Shown here piece after piece: positions 32,380 through 37,695 of a DNA stretch of 37,771 nt. The notes beneath the pieces were generated by a model. That model worked only from the letters and a program-made list of their open reading frames with translations. It was not told the origin of the DNA and ran no database searches. Both the position numbers and the translations under genes were made by a program. The DNA is from Desulfobulbaceae bacterium (GTDB taxonomy: Bacteria; Desulfobacterota; Desulfobulbia; Desulfobulbales; VMSU01). The DNA is taken from positions 1 to 37,771 of the forward strand of contig VMSU01000162.1 in the NCBI GenBank assembly GCA_013792005.1, written 5' to 3'. The stretch's first letter is position 1. Each line of letters begins with the position of its first letter.

Positions 32380-33373
32380 TTACAGTCGATCAAGAGGACT
32401 TTGTAAGTTGCGGATATCTCTAGCCATCACGTGGGTATAAATTTCAGTGGTTTTCACATCCGCATGGCCCAGCAGTTCCTGAAGTACCCGAATATTCACC
32501 CCGTTCTCCAACATATGAGTGGCAAAACTGTGCCGCAGGGTGTGGCAACCTATCTTCTTGTCAATCCCGGCCACCTGCGAGGCATTTTTCACCGCTTTCT
32601 GTAAGCCGCTCTCAATAACATGATGGCGCATCACCTTGCCAGACCTGGGGTCGACAGAGCGATCGCGTGAAGGGAATACCCACTGCCATCCAGTCTCCTT
32701 CGAAGCGCTTTTATATTTGCGAGCCAACGCCTCTGGCATTGTTACTTCACCGAAGCCTTCTTCAAGATCACGGTGATGCAGCTTTTTAACCGCTTCGATA
32801 TGGGAGTGAAACTCATCACGAATGTTCCGGGGTAGAACAGTGGTCCGATCCTTGCCTCCTTTGCCGCCCCGTACAAAGATAAGGTTCTGACCGAAATCAA
32901 CATCCTGCACGCGGAGACGGAAACACTCCATCAACCTCAGTCCAGCGCCGTAAAGCAGTCGGGCCATGAGCAGGTGCTTACCTTCCATAGCCGCAAAAAG
33001 GCGTTGAACTTCGGACTGAATAAGCACAGTGGGCGGGCCTGGCGATTCGTTTACTACGAATAGGTGAGATTTGGCCGTCAAGGGGCTTGTCGAGCACATC
33101 TCTGTATAGAAAAACCAGCGCGTTTAGGGCTTGACGCTGGGTCGCTGCCGAGACCTTACCTTCTGTGACGAGAGAGGACAGAAAAATTTCTACCTCCTTA
33201 GCCCCCAAAGTATTGGGGTGGGTCTTGCCGCCAAAGTGATGTATGTAGCGTAAAATCCACTGGCAGTAAGTTTTTTCAGTGCTATATGCGTAGTGATGAT
33301 AGCGAAGTACCTCACGAGTTTGATCCATCAGCTTGAGCTTGGGATTAGGACGGAACTTTGGTTTATTTTCCAT
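32380..33373 (-). pseudogene. intI: Integron integrase IntI (tyrosine recombinase), frameshifted
   Basis: Two overlapping frames encode one IntI-type integrase of about 330 residues. The N-terminal SAM-like core-binding domain (from the ATG at 33373, MENKPKFRPNPKLKL, with AGAGGG upstream, through YHHYAYSTEKTYCQWI and LDKPLDGQISPIRSKR) ends in the wrong frame near 33045. The catalytic domain resumes one base on (PGPPTVLIQSEVQRLF) and reads to 32380. All catalytic residues are kept: Arg in LYGAGLRLMECFRL, the KGGKDR loop, HTLRHSFATHML, LLGHADVKTTEIYTHV with the Tyr. The IntI-specific extra patch (HHRDLEEGFGEV...LARKY...WQWVFPS) is present. Losing one base around 33044-33058 would repair it. It points away from the cassette array, as usual. 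A real inactivating mutation or a sequence error are both possible. Confidence 0.85.
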
Positions 33374-33380
33374 ATTTGCC

Positions 33381-33540
33381 CTCTTAATATCGTAATAAGT
33401 GGAAAAATAGATCGTAATGGTAATAAGTGGACTGACAATGCCCACTTATTCCATATTATACTCTTTAATATCACAATAAGTGGAAAATTTGTCCGTATAT
33501 AGTATGTGATATGCTGGACTACTTTCCACTTATTCAACTG
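33381..33540. other. attI-like region with repeated AATAAGTGG motif
   Basis: The 170 bases between the integrase start and the first cassette contain AATAAGTGG three times in direct orientation (33394-33402, 33422-33430, 33475-33483) and twice inverted as CCACTTATT (33442-33450, 33526-33534). Two of the direct copies belong to a longer imperfect repeat, CTCTTaATATC..AATAAGTGGAAAA...CGTA, with a period of about 81 bases. The last inverted copy lies 5 bases before the first cassette junction at GTTAGCG (33540). This is where attI, the integrase promoter and the cassette promoter are expected. Confidence 0.65.
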
Positions 33541-33561
33541 TTAGCGCCAAAATGAGTGATC

Positions 33562-33742
33562 ATGGAAAAAACAGTAAGAGATAAATTGGTCGAAAAATTA
33601 AGATCAATAAAAAATCAGGGCCTTATGTTTTTTGAGAGAGCCTCTTTAGATCTCGATGGATGCACATTTGGAACTGACCAGTTTGGAAAAGTTGCAAAAG
33701 ACGAATTTTGGAATCAACTAGAACCGTCTAACCAAGAACTTG
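33562..33742 (+). pseudogene. 5' fragment of cassette-1 gene, cut by the IS3-family element
   Basis: An ATG at 33562 opens a frame of 60 codons (MEKTVRDKLVEKLRSIKNQG...NQLEPSNQEL) up to the left end of the insertion sequence. Read on, the frame enters the element and stops at 33906. Joined to position 35159, leaving out the element and one CTTG copy, it continues in frame through the downstream fragment (35179-35937) as a single 319-residue protein. It lies directly inside the first cassette, 22 bases after the cassette junction. Confidence 0.75.
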
Positions 33743-33811
33743 TGTTTTGGCTCAGCGTGAATTGGACTTTTGGTTCGTTTGTGATAAACCATCACGAACG
33801 GAGGAAAGTCC

Positions 33812-34120
33812 ATGCGAAAGAAGCGTCACAATTACACCCCAGAAGAAAAAGTTTCCATTTTGAGACGTCACCTGATCGAGCGTATCCCAGTATCCGACCT
33901 GTGTGACGAGCAACAACTTCAGCCCACGACTTTTTACCTTTGGCAGAAGCAGTTTTTCGAGAACGGAGCCGCAGCATTTGCCTGTAACGACCGCCCTCAA
34001 AAGCGTGCTGAAGAAGTCAAAATCCAGCAGCTTGAGGCCAAACTAAGCAGAAAGCACGAAGTTCTCTCCGAACTGATGGAGGAACACATCAAGCTAAAAA
34101 AAGAACTTGGGGAGCTCTAA
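33812..34120 (+). CDS. IS3-family transposase OrfA
   Basis: This is a 102-residue protein with an N-terminal helix-turn-helix (RHNYTPEEKVSILRRHLIE...ISDLCDE-like, LQPTTFYLWQKQFFENG) and a C-terminal leucine-zipper-like coiled coil (VKIQQLEAKLSRKHEVLSELMEEHIKLKKELGEL shown as VKIQQLEAKLSRKHEVLSEL and MEEHIKLKKELGEL). OrfA binds the inverted repeats and, alone, usually limits transposition. A GGAGG ribosome binding site lies upstream (CGGAGGAAAGTCC). Its last codons overlap OrfB through a slippery A7 (34096-34102), as expected for making the OrfAB fusion transposase. Confidence 0.92.
   Translation: MRKKRHNYTPEEKVSILRRHLIERIPVSDLCDEQQLQPTTFYLWQKQFFENGAAAFACNDRPQKRAEEVKIQQLEAKLSRKHEVLSELMEEHIKLKKELGEL
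34096..34102 (+). promoter_or_regulatory. Programmed -1 frameshift site A_AAA_AAA_G between OrfA and OrfB
   Basis: In the OrfA frame the codons are CTA AAA AAA GAA, so the heptamer A_AAA_AAA is correctly phased for -1 slippage. After slipping, the frame continues open through ALTGGWVPHDIRDAIVDYT into OrfB. This is the standard IS3-family way to make the OrfAB fusion. Confidence 0.8.
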
Positions 34121-35127
34121 CCGGCGGCTGGGTTCCTCATGACATTCGCGACGCCATTGTTGATTATACCAAGGAGTGGAGCGACAAGGCGGATATCCAC
34201 CTAAAGTGCTTCATCTCCTGGCTGTCGGTCTCAAAGAGCAAGTTTTACACCTGGGTCGAGCGGTACGGCAAAGCGAACGAACACAATGCCCCTATTCCTC
34301 GCGATTTCTGGCTTGAATCCTGGGAACAGGAAGCCATTGTCAGGTTTGCCCTCGACAACCCGCTTGAGGGATATCGGCGCCTGACTTTTATGATGCTGGA
34401 TCAGAATATCGTGGCCGTCAGCCCCTCAAGCACCTGGCGTGTTTTAACAAAGGCAGGCCTGCTGAAAAAGTGGAACCAAAAACCATCTCTCAGGGGAACC
34501 GGGTTCGTTCAGCCTCTGCTGCCTTTTGAACATTGGCATGTTGATGTCTCTCACCTCAACATCCGTGGCACCTTCTACTACCTGTGCAGCTTTCTGGATG
34601 GGTGCAGTCGTTCAATCATCCATTGGGAAATCAGAGAGCAGATGACTGAGAGAGACGTAGAAATCATACTCGAAAGAGCAAAGGAGAAATACCCGGCAGC
34701 CAGACCTCGGATCATTTCCGACAACGGGCCTCAGTTCATTGCCAAAGATTTCAAGGAGTTCATCAGAATTTCAGGAATGACCCATGTGCGAACTTCACCC
34801 TTTTATCCGCAGTCAAACGGCAAACTGGAGCGGTTCCACAAAACCATCAAAAGTGAATGCATTCGTCCCGGAGTTCCGCTTTCCCTTGACGATGGCCGCA
34901 GAATTGTCGAGAAGTACATTGAGCACTACAACACCGTCAGGCTTCACAGCGCCATTGGCTACGTTACCCCGGCCGACAAGCTGAATGGCCGGGAAAAAGA
35001 AATATTCAAAGAGCGAGACAGAAAACTTGAAGAGGCCAGAGAACTGAGAAAGCAAAAACGGCAAAAAGCTTTCTCTGAAATCATGAGCCCAGGGCAAGCT
35101 GATTTACCATTAAGTCAGACGGGCTAA
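34102..35127 (+). CDS. IS3-family transposase OrfB (DDE integrase domain)
   Basis: Expressed by -1 frameshifting from OrfA, this frame is open from about 34102. It first encodes a segment with FISWLSVSKSKFYTWVERYG and WEQEAIVRFALDNPLEGYRRL (an HTH_21-like part), then the rve/DDE domain: HWHVDVSHLNIRGTFYYL (first Asp), ISDNGPQFIAKDF (second Asp), SPFYPQSNGKLERFHKTIK (catalytic Glu) and EHYNTVRLHSAIGYVTPADK. The first in-frame ATG is at 34390, which would cut off the N-terminal part, so the fusion is the likely active form. All three catalytic residues are present, so the element may be functional. Confidence 0.9.
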   Translation, partial: RTWGALTGGWVPHDIRDAIVDYTKEWSDKADIHLKCFISWLSVSKSKFYTWVERYGKANEHNAPIPRDFWLESWEQEAIVRFALDNPLEGYRRLTFMMLDQNIVAVSPSSTWRVLTKAGLLKKWNQKPSLRGTGFVQPLLPFEHWHVDVSHLNIRGTFYYLCSFLDGCSRSIIHWEIREQMTERDVEIILERAKEKYPAARPRIISDNGPQFIAKDFKEFIRISGMTHVRTSPFYPQSNGKLERFHKTIKSECIRPGVPLSLDDGRRIVEKYIEHYNTVRLHSAIGYVTPADKLNGREKEIFKERDRKLEEARELRKQKRQKAFSEIMSPGQADLPLSQTG

Positions 35128-35178
35128 AAGTCCATTTCCGACTGAGGCGGAACACTTGCCCAGGAGCTAATCACAAAA

Positions 35179-35937
35179 GTGGTGAATGAAACACCTTTGA
35201 TAGCTGAGTGTGCAAGACTAACTCCTTACCTTTCTCAAACTGATCAAATTGAAATAGGACATGCGATTAAGGGTATTAGGTCAGCGCTACGCCTACGTCA
35301 GTATCGCTATTGGGGGCCGAACGTTCTTCATGACGAAGGATATGTTCTTGGTGTTGAACCCGCTGGGCAGTCAGATGATGACGGCATCAGTGATGAAGAT
35401 TCAAAGAACATTTTTTTAGAGTGTTATGATCGAATTTTGGGAATTGTTGAGTTGTTAAACCCAATTACTATAGAAACAGCCAAAGACAATATAATAGCTA
35501 CAAACCAATCCAAGACCACATTCAGGCCAGACACTGCATTTGTAATGATGTGGATGGATGAAAAAAAATATGAACTAGAAGATGTGCACAATACAGTAAA
35601 AAAATGCTTTGAAAAAATTGGCGTTGAAGCGGAACGAGCTGACGACATAGAACACGATGGGAAAATCACAGAAAAAATAATTGAGAAAATCAAATCCGCT
35701 GAGTTTTTATTTGCCGATTTAACAGGAGCGAGGCCTAATGTCTACTATGAGGTGGGTTTTGCTCATGCCTTAAGTAAAAGGGTAATTCTTTTCAGGAAAA
35801 AAGGCGAATCTCTTCATTTCGATTTGGCTGGTTATAATTGCCCTGAGTATAAAAATATGTCTGATCTAGAAAATAAGCTCTCAGCTAGGCTGGAAAGCAT
35901 GACAGGAAAAACCGTAAAAAATAGAAAAATGCGCTAA
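35179..35937 (+). CDS. 3' part of cassette-1 protein, with nucleoside-deoxyribosyltransferase/TIR-like signature
   Basis: The open frame after the IS runs from a GTG at 35179 (252 residues). It is in frame with the 5' fragment once the IS is removed, so the original protein had 319 residues. The C-terminal domain (about 125-235 of this fragment) contains TAFVMMWMDEKKYELEDVHNTVKKCFEKIGVEAERADDIEHDG (read as TAFVMMWMD...CFEKIGVEAERADDIEHDG), EFLFADLTGARPNVYYEVGF and AHALSKRVILFRKKGE. The 'ADLTGxxPNVYYEvGxAHAL' box is typical of nucleoside 2-deoxyribosyltransferase-like and TIR-like proteins, several of which serve in phage defence or NAD+ cleavage. The N-terminal part (ECARLTPYLSQTDQIEIGHA) is unrecognised. 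The sequence is more AT-rich than the chromosome to the left. Its stop overlaps the R'' box of the first attC. Confidence 0.75.
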   Translation: MVNETPLIAECARLTPYLSQTDQIEIGHAIKGIRSALRLRQYRYWGPNVLHDEGYVLGVEPAGQSDDDGISDEDSKNIFLECYDRILGIVELLNPITIETAKDNIIATNQSKTTFRPDTAFVMMWMDEKKYELEDVHNTVKKCFEKIGVEAERADDIEHDGKITEKIIEKIKSAEFLFADLTGARPNVYYEVGFAHALSKRVILFRKKGESLHFDLAGYNCPEYKNMSDLENKLSARLESMTGKTVKNRKMR

Positions 35938-36059
35938 CCAATCATTGCAGTGGAAAATCAGGGGTTTGGTTTATCGAGATACCATTGTTAATTCCAACGT
36001 TCGTAGTTTTAAACAAACTCATCGTATCCCCTGTTTTCCACTGAATTCAAACGATAAGA
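35931..36059 (+). other. attC site 1 (end of cassette 1)
   Basis: R'' is GCGCTAAC (35931-35938), the exact inverse complement of GTTAGCGC at the start of the cassette (33540-33547). That is what a circularised cassette requires. The long arms are CAGTGGAAAA-T-CAGGGG and CCCCT-G-TTTTCCACTG. The R' box aligns with GATAAGA (36053-36059), an unusual variant of GTTRRRY. The loop of about 70 bases between the arms holds no gene. Confidence 0.65.
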
Positions 36060-36097
36060 GAGACCGCTCGCAAAGCTCGCAAGCGGTCTCTCTTATC
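36053..36097. repeat. 16-bp perfect inverted repeat in a cassette without a gene
   Basis: GATAAGAGAGACCGCT (36053-36068) and AGCGGTCTCTCTTATC (36082-36097) are exact inverse complements with a 13-base spacer. The left arm starts at the R' of attC 1 and the right arm ends at the R'' of attC 2, so the two arms span the whole non-attC part of cassette 2. Confidence 0.7.
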
Positions 36098-36207
36098 GTC
36101 GCCGGATGCTTCGCTATTGTGGCCTGATTGGTTCCGCGCTTCGCGCTCCACCTATCAGGCCAATAGAGCCGACTGCGATTCTCGCGGCTCATCCGGCGAC
36201 GTTAGGC
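36090..36207 (+). other. attC site 2 (end of cassette 2)
   Basis: GTCGCCGGATG (36098-36108) pairs with CATCCGGCGAC (36190-36200), immediately followed by a canonical R' GTTAGGC (36201-36207). An inner stem GGCCTGAT/ATCAGGCC and a GCGCTTCGCGC loop stem are also present. R'' is CTCTTATC, matching the inverse complement of the cassette-2 start GATAAGAG. Confidence 0.7.
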
Positions 36208-36221
36208 CTTCAAGGGAAACT

Positions 36222-36812
36222 ATGAACTACGGCGAAGAACTCACTTACTGGTATCTACGACTTAATGGTTTTTTTCCAATCTCGAACTTTGTTGTCCATA
36301 AATCGCAAAGCGTTCTTTATTCATCTGACGTCGATTTATTGGCAGTGCGGCCGCCATACGTTTTCGAGGAAATAGGTGGTCGGCCTGAAGATTGGGACGA
36401 ATATCTAACTGAAAATCTTGATTTTGGACGTCAGGTTGGTCTTATCTGTGAAGTTAAGACTGGCAGGTTTAAAGAAGCACGAATCTTTCGCGCTGAGCAG
36501 TTGCATTACACGCTACCGAGGCTTGGACTGGTCGCCCAGAAAGAAGTTGAGCAAATCCTTGAAACACTGAAAATGTCACCATCCATAAATATTGGAGGTG
36601 CCACTATCGCGAAGTTATTTATCTCCGAAGCGGAGCACACTAACGGCCCATACCTAAACCGAACATTGCAGCAAATTGAGGATTTTTTAGCCGATAGAGT
36701 TCGTCGATATCCTCTTGAAAAATATGCAGATAGGATGTTTTTCCCTTCGCACACATTTCAATTCATCATTGCTCAGGTATATCGCTCAATTGAAAAACGA
36801 AAAACGGGCTAA
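36222..36812 (+). CDS. Cassette-3 protein with PD-(D/E)xK-like motif
   Basis: This is a 196-residue protein starting at the ATG at 36222, with AAGGGAAAC upstream and 15 bases after the attC-2 R' box; an upstream in-frame extension only reads through attC. The N-terminal half has an alpha-beta pattern: MNYGEELTYWYLRLNGFFPI, YSSDVDLLAVRPP (acidic DVD, about 34) and VGLICEVKTGRF (ExK, about 75). Together these form the D...ExK motif of the restriction-endonuclease-like fold. The C-terminal half (TLPRLGLVAQKEVEQIL and onward) has no known motif. A DNA-cleaving or DNA-processing role, for example in defence, is possible but not shown. It is the only gene in its cassette and should be read from the array promoter or a local one. 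Confidence 0.8.
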   Translation: MNYGEELTYWYLRLNGFFPISNFVVHKSQSVLYSSDVDLLAVRPPYVFEEIGGRPEDWDEYLTENLDFGRQVGLICEVKTGRFKEARIFRAEQLHYTLPRLGLVAQKEVEQILETLKMSPSINIGGATIAKLFISEAEHTNGPYLNRTLQQIEDFLADRVRRYPLEKYADRMFFPSHTFQFIIAQVYRSIEKRKTG

Positions 36813-36894
36813 CACGGCAATAAACCTGACTGGAAATAGCCGCGTTCTTAAAATCTGGTAAATCTCGGCCAGCAGGTTATTACAAACGTTGGGC
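36807..36894 (+). other. attC site 3 (end of cassette 3)
   Basis: R'' GGCTAAC (36807-36813) and R' GTTGGGC (36888-36894) flank the arms AATAAACCTG and CAGGTTATTA, which pair with one internal difference. The total length is 88 bases. R'' overlaps the stop region of the cassette-3 gene. The R'' box differs by one base from the perfect complement of the cassette's own start GTTAGGC. Confidence 0.8.
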
Positions 36895-36914: not shown

Positions 36915-37625
36915 ATGGCAGAGAATGACAACGAGCATGACGTTACCGCAAACCAAAAGACGACGCTTCAAAATGCATCTAGTTTGGCCGCAGTCAAAGT
37001 AATTCTTGAGTTTGTAAGCAAGTGTTTTTATCCCGCAATCACGGCTGCGGTTCTTGTAATGCTCTGGACGCCATTGAGTTCGATCGATATTAGCGGACTC
37101 ATACTACGTCTTCAATCTGTAAAAGCCGGAAACTACGAGTTAGCATTTAGTCAAGCTCAGGATGTCGGAGCAGAAATTGCTCCGTTGAACGGCCGTATTG
37201 CGGAGCTAGAGCGAATTGTAGCGTCTTTGCAGACTGACTTGAAGAGAACACAAGAGGTGACGAAGGTCACGCTACCTCAGCAGGAAGTCCAGGCACGCAA
37301 GAATCAAGATGAAAAGTTCAAAGCAAATTCACAGTACACAATTCTCGTCTTTCACAGACGAGAAAGTCGGGACCCTGCAAATTTGATAACTCAGGCCCTC
37401 TTGAAGGGCGGGTATGTGTCTTCCGACACAGAAACTGACTTCTCTGAGTTGAAGAAGGTAACGCCAAGTCCAAATTTGATATTCATCACATATACTGTTG
37501 CTGGACAGCAAGTGCTTGAAGAAGTTGAAGCACTTGTTCGTTCTGTGGCACCTAATGCTGAAGTTAGGTACAATCCGCAACCGATATCACTTCGGCGCGG
37601 AGATATTCAAGTAATGGCATTCTAG
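36915..37625 (+). CDS. Cassette-4 membrane protein with coiled coil, unknown function
   Basis: I do not recognise this 236-residue protein. A polar N-terminus (about 1-30) leads to one strongly hydrophobic segment (FYPAITAAVLVMLWTPL, about 37-53). A helical stretch with heptad-like spacing follows (IAPLNGRIAELERIVASLQT and on to about 115), then a C-terminal alpha-beta domain (YTILVFHRRESRDPANLITQ, GGYVSSDTETDFSELKKV, NLIFITYTVAGQQVLEEVEALV). The layout suggests a membrane-anchored sensor or effector with the C-terminal domain in the cytoplasm. The gene begins 20 bases after the attC-3 R' box, with GGGGAG upstream, and ends just before attC 4. Confidence 0.75.
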   Translation: MAENDNEHDVTANQKTTLQNASSLAAVKVILEFVSKCFYPAITAAVLVMLWTPLSSIDISGLILRLQSVKAGNYELAFSQAQDVGAEIAPLNGRIAELERIVASLQTDLKRTQEVTKVTLPQQEVQARKNQDEKFKANSQYTILVFHRRESRDPANLITQALLKGGYVSSDTETDFSELKKVTPSPNLIFITYTVAGQQVLEEVEALVRSVAPNAEVRYNPQPISLRRGDIQVMAF

Positions 37626-37632
37626 GAATGTG

Positions 37633-37695
37633 GCCCAACGAATAAGGTTAGATTGTGAGAGCGCAGCGAACCACAATCTGAACCGTTTGTTGGAC
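37633..37695 (+). other. attC site 4 (end of cassette 4)
   Basis: This is the most canonical attC of the array at 63 bases. R'' GCCCAAC (37633-37639) is the exact complement of the cassette start GTTGGGC. The arms AGGTTAGATTGTG and CACAATCTGAACC pair with a small bulge, and R' is GTTGGAC (37689-37695). A fifth cassette starts after it; no start codon is seen in the remaining 76 bases. Confidence 0.88.

What the first reader, a model, noticed from the sequence alone, without database searches (positions are those of the whole stretch)
33562..35937. IS3 element splits a cassette gene; removal restores a 319-codon frame
Taking out 33,743-35,154 and one CTTG copy joins codon 60 of the upstream frame to the downstream frame without any stop: the reading continues ...NQEL-AQELITKVV...VNETPLIAECARL. 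This establishes the IS ends, its 4-bp duplication and the original gene. The protein has the ADLTGxxPNVYYEVGxAHAL box seen in deoxyribosyltransferase-like and TIR-like proteins, some of which act in defence. Disruption inside an integron suggests a costly or toxic product.
Basis: seen in the sequence. Interest (0 to 1): 0.75.

Follow-up and report, generated by a model that had tools for sequence, protein, structure and literature searches.

The report
IS3-interrupted TIR-like integron cassette gene
In a Desulfobulbales-type bacterium a jumping gene (an IS3-family element) has landed inside the first gene of an integron, splitting a gene whose intact relatives encode a probable NAD- or nucleotide-cleaving enzyme of the kind bacteria use against phages; the split is real, but it does not show that the gene was harmful.

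Summary
33,743-35,154 is a complete 1,412-bp IS3-family element with 29-bp imperfect ends and a CTTG duplication. Three other copies (81-85% identical) in class-mates have exactly the same ends, and two of the three are flanked by 4-bp duplications. It interrupts codon 60 of a 319-codon gene. Intact natural homologues contain both halves: the closest (316 aa) matches the upstream 59 residues at 53% and the downstream 255 at 76%, contiguously and without a gap. Three more full-length homologues also carry an N-terminal region of this size. The gene is the first cassette of an integron: intI (frameshifted), GTTAGCG upstream, and CGCTAAC over the stop codon. The C-terminal ~125 residues are a deoxyribosyltransferase/TIR-like domain with an invariant glutamate, and the modelled fold matches SfSTING-TIR, AbTir, SARM1 and DNPH1. 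The N-terminal ~180 residues match no family library. Most likely the intact protein is a single-gene anti-phage effector (NADase); this is inferred, not shown. The claim that disruption implies a costly or toxic product is not supported: IS3 insertions in cassette genes are documented elsewhere, and the homologues found are intact.

The parts
32380..33445 (-). integron integrase intI in two frames (32978-33445 and 32380-33099); frame broken near 33031-33047
   Evidence: TIGR02249 positions 2-94 in one frame and 97-315 in the other
33446..33540 (.). presumed attI region between intI and first cassette, with repeats of AATAAGTGGAAA
   Evidence: position and sequence; inference
33540..33546 (+). 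GTTAGCG, integration point of the first cassette
   Evidence: exact complement of CGCTAAC over the stop codon
33562..33738 (+). first 59 codons of the interrupted cassette gene
   Evidence: 53% identity to residues 1-59 of intact homologue L010
33739..33742 (.). CTTG, left copy of the target-site duplication
33743..35154 (+). IS3-family element, 1412 bp
33743..33771 (+). left terminal inverted repeat (29 bp, 22 matches to the right one)
33812..34120 (+). OrfA, HTH_Tnp_1, 102 aa
   Evidence: PF01527 E 1.2e-9
34097..34103 (+). AAAAAAG, candidate -1 frameshift site near the end of OrfA
   Evidence: function inferred
34105..35127 (+). OrfB, integrase-core transposase, DDE with 35 residues between D and E
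   Evidence: PF00665 E 5.3e-19, NF033516 159.2 bits against cutoff 160, DDE spacing
35126..35154 (-). right terminal inverted repeat
35155..35158 (.). CTTG, right copy of the target-site duplication
35155..35937 (+). rest of the interrupted gene, 260 codons plus stop
   Evidence: 76% identity to residues 60-314 of L010
35524..35904 (+). C-terminal deoxyribosyltransferase/TIR-like domain; the invariant Glu codon is GAG 35749-35751
35932..35938 (+). CGCTAAC, start box of the cassette's attC; contains the stop codon
35932..36207 (+). unusual 276-bp attC region up to GTTAGGC, with several hairpins
36222..36812 (+). second cassette gene (196 aa, no confident family match)
36807..36894 (+). attC-like site of the second cassette (GGCTAAC...GTTGGGC)
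   Evidence: count alone is not above shuffles
36915..37625 (+). third cassette gene (236 aa)
37633..37695 (+). attC-like site of the third cassette (GCCCAAC...GTTGGAC)
   Evidence: fold z-score -3.8

Best explanation
The first cassette of an integron carried a single-gene cassette for a 319-residue protein: about 180 mostly helical N-terminal residues (sensor or oligomerisation part; fold uncertain) and a C-terminal deoxyribosyltransferase/TIR-like enzyme domain. A complete IS3-family element transposed into codon 60 in the sense direction, duplicated CTTG and split the gene, so that this copy is inactive or at most yields an N-truncated product. Shown: the element, its ends, the duplication, the split gene, intact homologues, the domain and its invariant glutamate. 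Inferred: when intact, the N-terminal part senses infection or oligomerises, the C-terminal domain cleaves NAD+ (or another nucleotide) through that glutamate, and the cell stops growing before the phage matures.
For: Split gene. IS ends. Cassette: intI next door; GTTAGCG/CGCTAAC exact pair with the stop inside, same signature in L011 and L022; 3 of the 5 full-length members (the window gene, L010, L011, L013, L022) against 9 of 369 listed control ORFs, three of which are themselves family members or a likely cassette. Enzyme domain; 54 of 54 aligned relatives match PADLOC TIR effector PDLC00733; Glu, Pro, Val, Tyr, Gly and Asp (E258, P253, V255, Y257, G260, D282 of L010) invariant in 54; model C-domain pLDDT about 94; fold matches SfSTING (7un8), DNPH1, AbTir, TIR-APAZ/Ago, SARM1. 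The Glu aligns with DNPH1 Glu104, but the DNPH1 Asp80 position is Ile here and Ile/Val in all 54, which argues against a DNPH1-type nucleotide hydrolase. A related TIR-like family with a conserved Glu is a reported NADase and anti-phage system (preprint PMC13174449). Integrons carry many anti-phage cassettes (PMC12409362).
Against: No activity or phage data exist. Foldseek E-values are modest (best 9e-4) and cannot separate NADase, nucleoside deoxyribosyltransferase and nucleotide glycosidase. The N-terminal part has no recognised family and a lower-confidence model. L013 shows no cassette signature, and its neighbours as read from the ORF list are not obvious defence genes.
Confidence: 0.6

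Rival explanations
1. The cassette protein is a housekeeping-like nucleotide-salvage enzyme (nucleoside deoxyribosyltransferase or dNMP N-glycosidase) with no defence role.
For: PF05014 is the only Pfam family above its cutoff; DNPH1 and deoxyribosyltransferases are among the best fold and profile matches.
Against: The DNPH1 Asp80 position is Ile/Val throughout; an extra 180-residue N-terminal region; all 54 relatives also match a TIR effector model; the domain sits at either end of otherwise different proteins on prophages and plasmids.
Confidence: 0.2
2. The insertion was selected because the gene product was costly.
For: First position in the array, usually the best expressed (PMC12409362); effector-like domain; the integrase is also broken.
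Against: One event; the other homologues found are intact; IS3/IS911 insertions in integron cassettes are documented in V. cholerae (PMC11023631); the element has many relatives in the class (56 of 253 genomes).
Confidence: 0.2
3. The IS is not simply destructive: the downstream 252-codon frame (GTG 35179, AGGAG just upstream) is expressed as an N-truncated protein.
For: The downstream frame is fully open, with a possible ribosome-binding site.
Against: No promoter-like site found at the IS right end; the full-length homologues all have the N-terminal part.
Confidence: 0.1
4. Chimeric assembly: the IS was placed here by the assembler of a draft genome.
For: Draft genome of 252 contigs.
Against: Perfect 4-bp duplication, exact IS ends as in other genomes, and a single copy in this genome; an assembler would not be expected to create a duplication.
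Confidence: 0.03

Closest known systems
IS3 family insertion sequences
   Same: 1.4 kb, TG...CA ends, 3-4 bp duplication, OrfA/OrfB with A6G before the overlap, DDE with 35 residues between D and E
   Different: nothing essential; not found in plasmid records at DNA level
PF10137 CAP12/Pycsar-effector TIR domain (SfSTING/Cap12, PycTIR)
   Same: same fold, conserved Glu, C-terminal effector position; top Foldseek hit 7un8
   Different: below the Pfam cutoff; no cyclase partner; N-terminal part has no family match
DUF4062 TIR-like NADases (Swarozyc; human TEP1), preprint PMC13174449
   Same: TIR-like domain linked to the deoxyribosyltransferase clan, conserved Glu, auxiliary domains
   Different: DUF4062 not matched here; domain arrangements not compared
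PF05014 nucleoside 2-deoxyribosyltransferase / DNPH1
   Same: PF05014 above cutoff; catalytic Glu position kept
   Different: DNPH1 Asp80 position not acidic; long extra N-terminal part
Integron anti-phage cassettes (Darracq 2025, Kieffer 2025, cited in PMC12409362)
   Same: single small defence-like gene in an integron
   Different: activity not tested; those two papers were not read here

Membership tests
IS3 family | terminal inverted repeats starting TG, with 3-4 bp target duplication | tested here: met
   29-bp ends 22/29, CTTG twice; ATTA and TTCT in other copies
IS3 family | two ORFs in frames 0 and -1 with a frameshift signal | tested here: met
   OrfA frame 0, OrfB frame -1, AAAAAAG 34097-34103; frameshifting itself not tested
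IS3 family | DDE transposase of the IS3 type | tested here: met
   DDE with 35 residues between D and E; NF033516 159.2 bits for OrfB alone against cutoff 160, PF00665
Integron gene cassette | next to intI, with matching recombination boxes and attC | tested here: met
   intI 32380-33445, GTTAGCG/CGCTAAC exact; its attC is unusually long
PF05014 nucleoside 2-deoxyribosyltransferase | profile score above gathering cutoff | tested here: met
   29.2 against 28.8 bits; the L010 homologue is below (25.7)
DNPH1-type dNMP N-hydrolase | catalytic Glu104 and Asp80 | tested here: not met
   Glu kept, Asp80 position is Ile
PF10137 CAP12/Pycsar TIR | profile score above gathering cutoff | tested here: not met
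   20.4 against 24.7 bits
CBASS/Pycsar system | adjacent nucleotide cyclase or CD-NTase | tested here: not met
   neighbours are intI and two cassettes with no PADLOC match and no Pfam match above cutoff
TIR NADase | conserved catalytic Glu in a TIR-like fold | tested here: met
   Glu in 54 of 54; AbTir and SARM1 among fold matches; superposition of the Glu on a TIR active site was not inspected
TIR NADase | NAD+ cleavage | not testable with these tools
   needs an enzyme assay

The most novel reading that the evidence does not exclude
A small, largely cassette-borne family (five full-length members found) joins an N-terminal domain matching no family library, with the conserved motif LHDEGxxLGVxxxGQSxD, to a TIR/deoxyribosyltransferase-like effector, forming an undescribed single-gene anti-phage system that travels between phyla by integrons.
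Probability: 0.35. Interest if true: 0.6.

Novelty: new variant of a known kind. Interest (0 to 1): 0.38.

Why it matters
It adds a probable single-gene defence cassette, with an N-terminal domain matched by no library searched, to what integrons carry outside Vibrio and mobile resistance integrons, and gives intact natural homologues to test. The insertion itself is ordinary.

Tried and rejected
A first structure prediction from three sequences was poor (pLDDT 52) and was replaced by one with 54 rows. The viral-contig scan with the full-length alignment found nothing; the domain-only scan found 98 relatives. Plain attC scans were not above shuffles, so the cassette claim rests on intI, the matched boxes and the stop-in-box signature. 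An IS left-end search in viral contigs and an IS search in plasmid DNA found none. dN/dS was saturated at synonymous sites (C-domain dN 0.12, dS 3.2; no dS value for the other parts), so it says only that the protein is constrained. Assembly artefact was considered and rejected.

Full report
Observation. The element at 33,743-35,154 is 1,412 bp, flanked by CTTG at 33,739-33,742 and 35,155-35,158, with 29-bp ends matching at 22 positions. OrfA carries HTH_Tnp_1 and OrfB an integrase core; OrfB has a DDE motif with 35 residues between D and E and scores 159.2 bits alone against a cutoff of 160 for the IS3 model. A slippery AAAAAAG lies at 34,097-34,103 near the end of OrfA. The genome has one copy. 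Three copies in two other genomes of the class align over exactly positions 1-1412 at 81-85% identity; two have their own 4-bp duplications, ATTA and TTCT, and one has none. The ends are therefore settled independently of the reading frame.

The gene. 33,562-33,738 is 59 codons in phase; 35,155-35,934 is 260 open codons; together 319. I compared the halves apart and did not build the rejoined sequence. The intact homologue L010 (316 aa) matches residues 1-59 at 53% and 60-314 at 76%, contiguous and without a gap. L011 (a Desulfocapsaceae genome), L013 and L022 are also full length. Members are rare: in N-terminal-part searches, 2 of 395 genomes of the phylum, 2 of 258 of the class and 2 of 296 around L010, each count including the query's own genome or that of the window. 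The L011 record was found again as G593, marked 'same order', so the window is probably from the order Desulfobulbales; this is inference.

The setting. The gene lies beside an integron integrase on the other strand; the integrase is split between two frames, TIGR02249 2-94 and 97-315. GTTAGCG at 33,540 is the exact complement of CGCTAAC at 35,932, which contains the stop codon, as in integron cassettes. L011 has the same exact pairing and L022 6 of 7; 9 of 369 control ORFs pass, of which three are L011, L022 and the gene upstream of the L010 homologue. Two further cassettes follow, with attC-like sites at 36,807-36,894 and 37,633-37,695; attC scans alone were not above shuffles. The first cassette's own attC region is odd, 276 bp with several hairpins.

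The protein. Only the C-terminal part has relatives in the libraries: PF05014 above cutoff and PF10137 below, PADLOC TIR effector E 7.6e-13. The 54 aligned proteins from viral contigs and genomes all match that effector model and share an invariant Glu. With these 54 rows the modelled C-domain reaches pLDDT about 94. Its fold matches SfSTING, deoxyribosyltransferases, DNPH1, AbTir, a TIR-APAZ/Ago complex and SARM1. The Glu falls on DNPH1 Glu104; the DNPH1 Asp80 position is Ile or Val in all 54. The DNPH1 residue numbers are my knowledge, checked by offset from the D80A entry in the alignment. The N-terminal 180 residues, mainly helical with low-confidence stretches, match no Pfam, PADLOC or PHROG family; NCBIfam was run on the window halves only.

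Function. A related TIR-like family with the same kind of conserved Glu, DUF4062, is reported as an NADase acting in phage defence (preprint PMC13174449), and DrHyd/TIR domains are described as NADase effectors or signal makers (PMC9503650). At least 16 of 179 V. cholerae integron cassettes were reported to act against phage, and cassettes of mobile integrons likewise (PMC12409362). So the most likely role of the intact protein is a single-gene defence effector that cleaves NAD+. This is inference from domain and setting.

The 'costly product' reading is not supported: one insertion, intact homologues elsewhere, and documented IS3/IS911 insertions in cassettes of the V. cholerae integron (PMC11023631). 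The same paper reports integrase inactivation favoured by homopolymers; here the intI break lies by GGGCGGG (33,031-33,037), which may be a real mutation or a draft-genome error.

Noticed in passing
32380-33445: intI reads in two frames; the break lies near GGGCGGG at 33031-33037. Real inactivation or sequencing error cannot be told apart.
   Followed up: partly
35932-36207: attC region of the first cassette is 276 bp with three or more hairpins, one of them a 21-bp near-perfect inverted repeat (36051-36071/36079-36099); looks like two attC halves joined after loss of a cassette.
   Followed up: partly
36222-36812: second cassette gene with DVDL...CEVKTG motif suggestive of a PD-(D/E)XK nuclease; no Pfam match above cutoff and no PADLOC match.
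   Followed up: no
36915-37625: third cassette gene: one likely membrane segment and a probable coiled coil; no confident family match.
   Followed up: no
L010:2078-2806: the gene before the closest homologue is a second protein with a membrane segment and the same deoxyribosyltransferase/TIR-like domain, with an attC-like site (2801-2882) between them.
   Followed up: partly
L010: contig labelled Prolixibacteraceae (12 kb, metagenome-assembled) also has a phage-type integrase 0.3 kb downstream; the organism label may be wrong.
   Followed up: no
L117:2389-3273: a genome of the same genus has a protein with this domain at the N-terminal end, near a phage-type repressor gene.
   Followed up: no
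H10-H30: enterobacterial and related plasmids carry a TRAFs-binding (DUF4071) protein with this domain.
   Followed up: no
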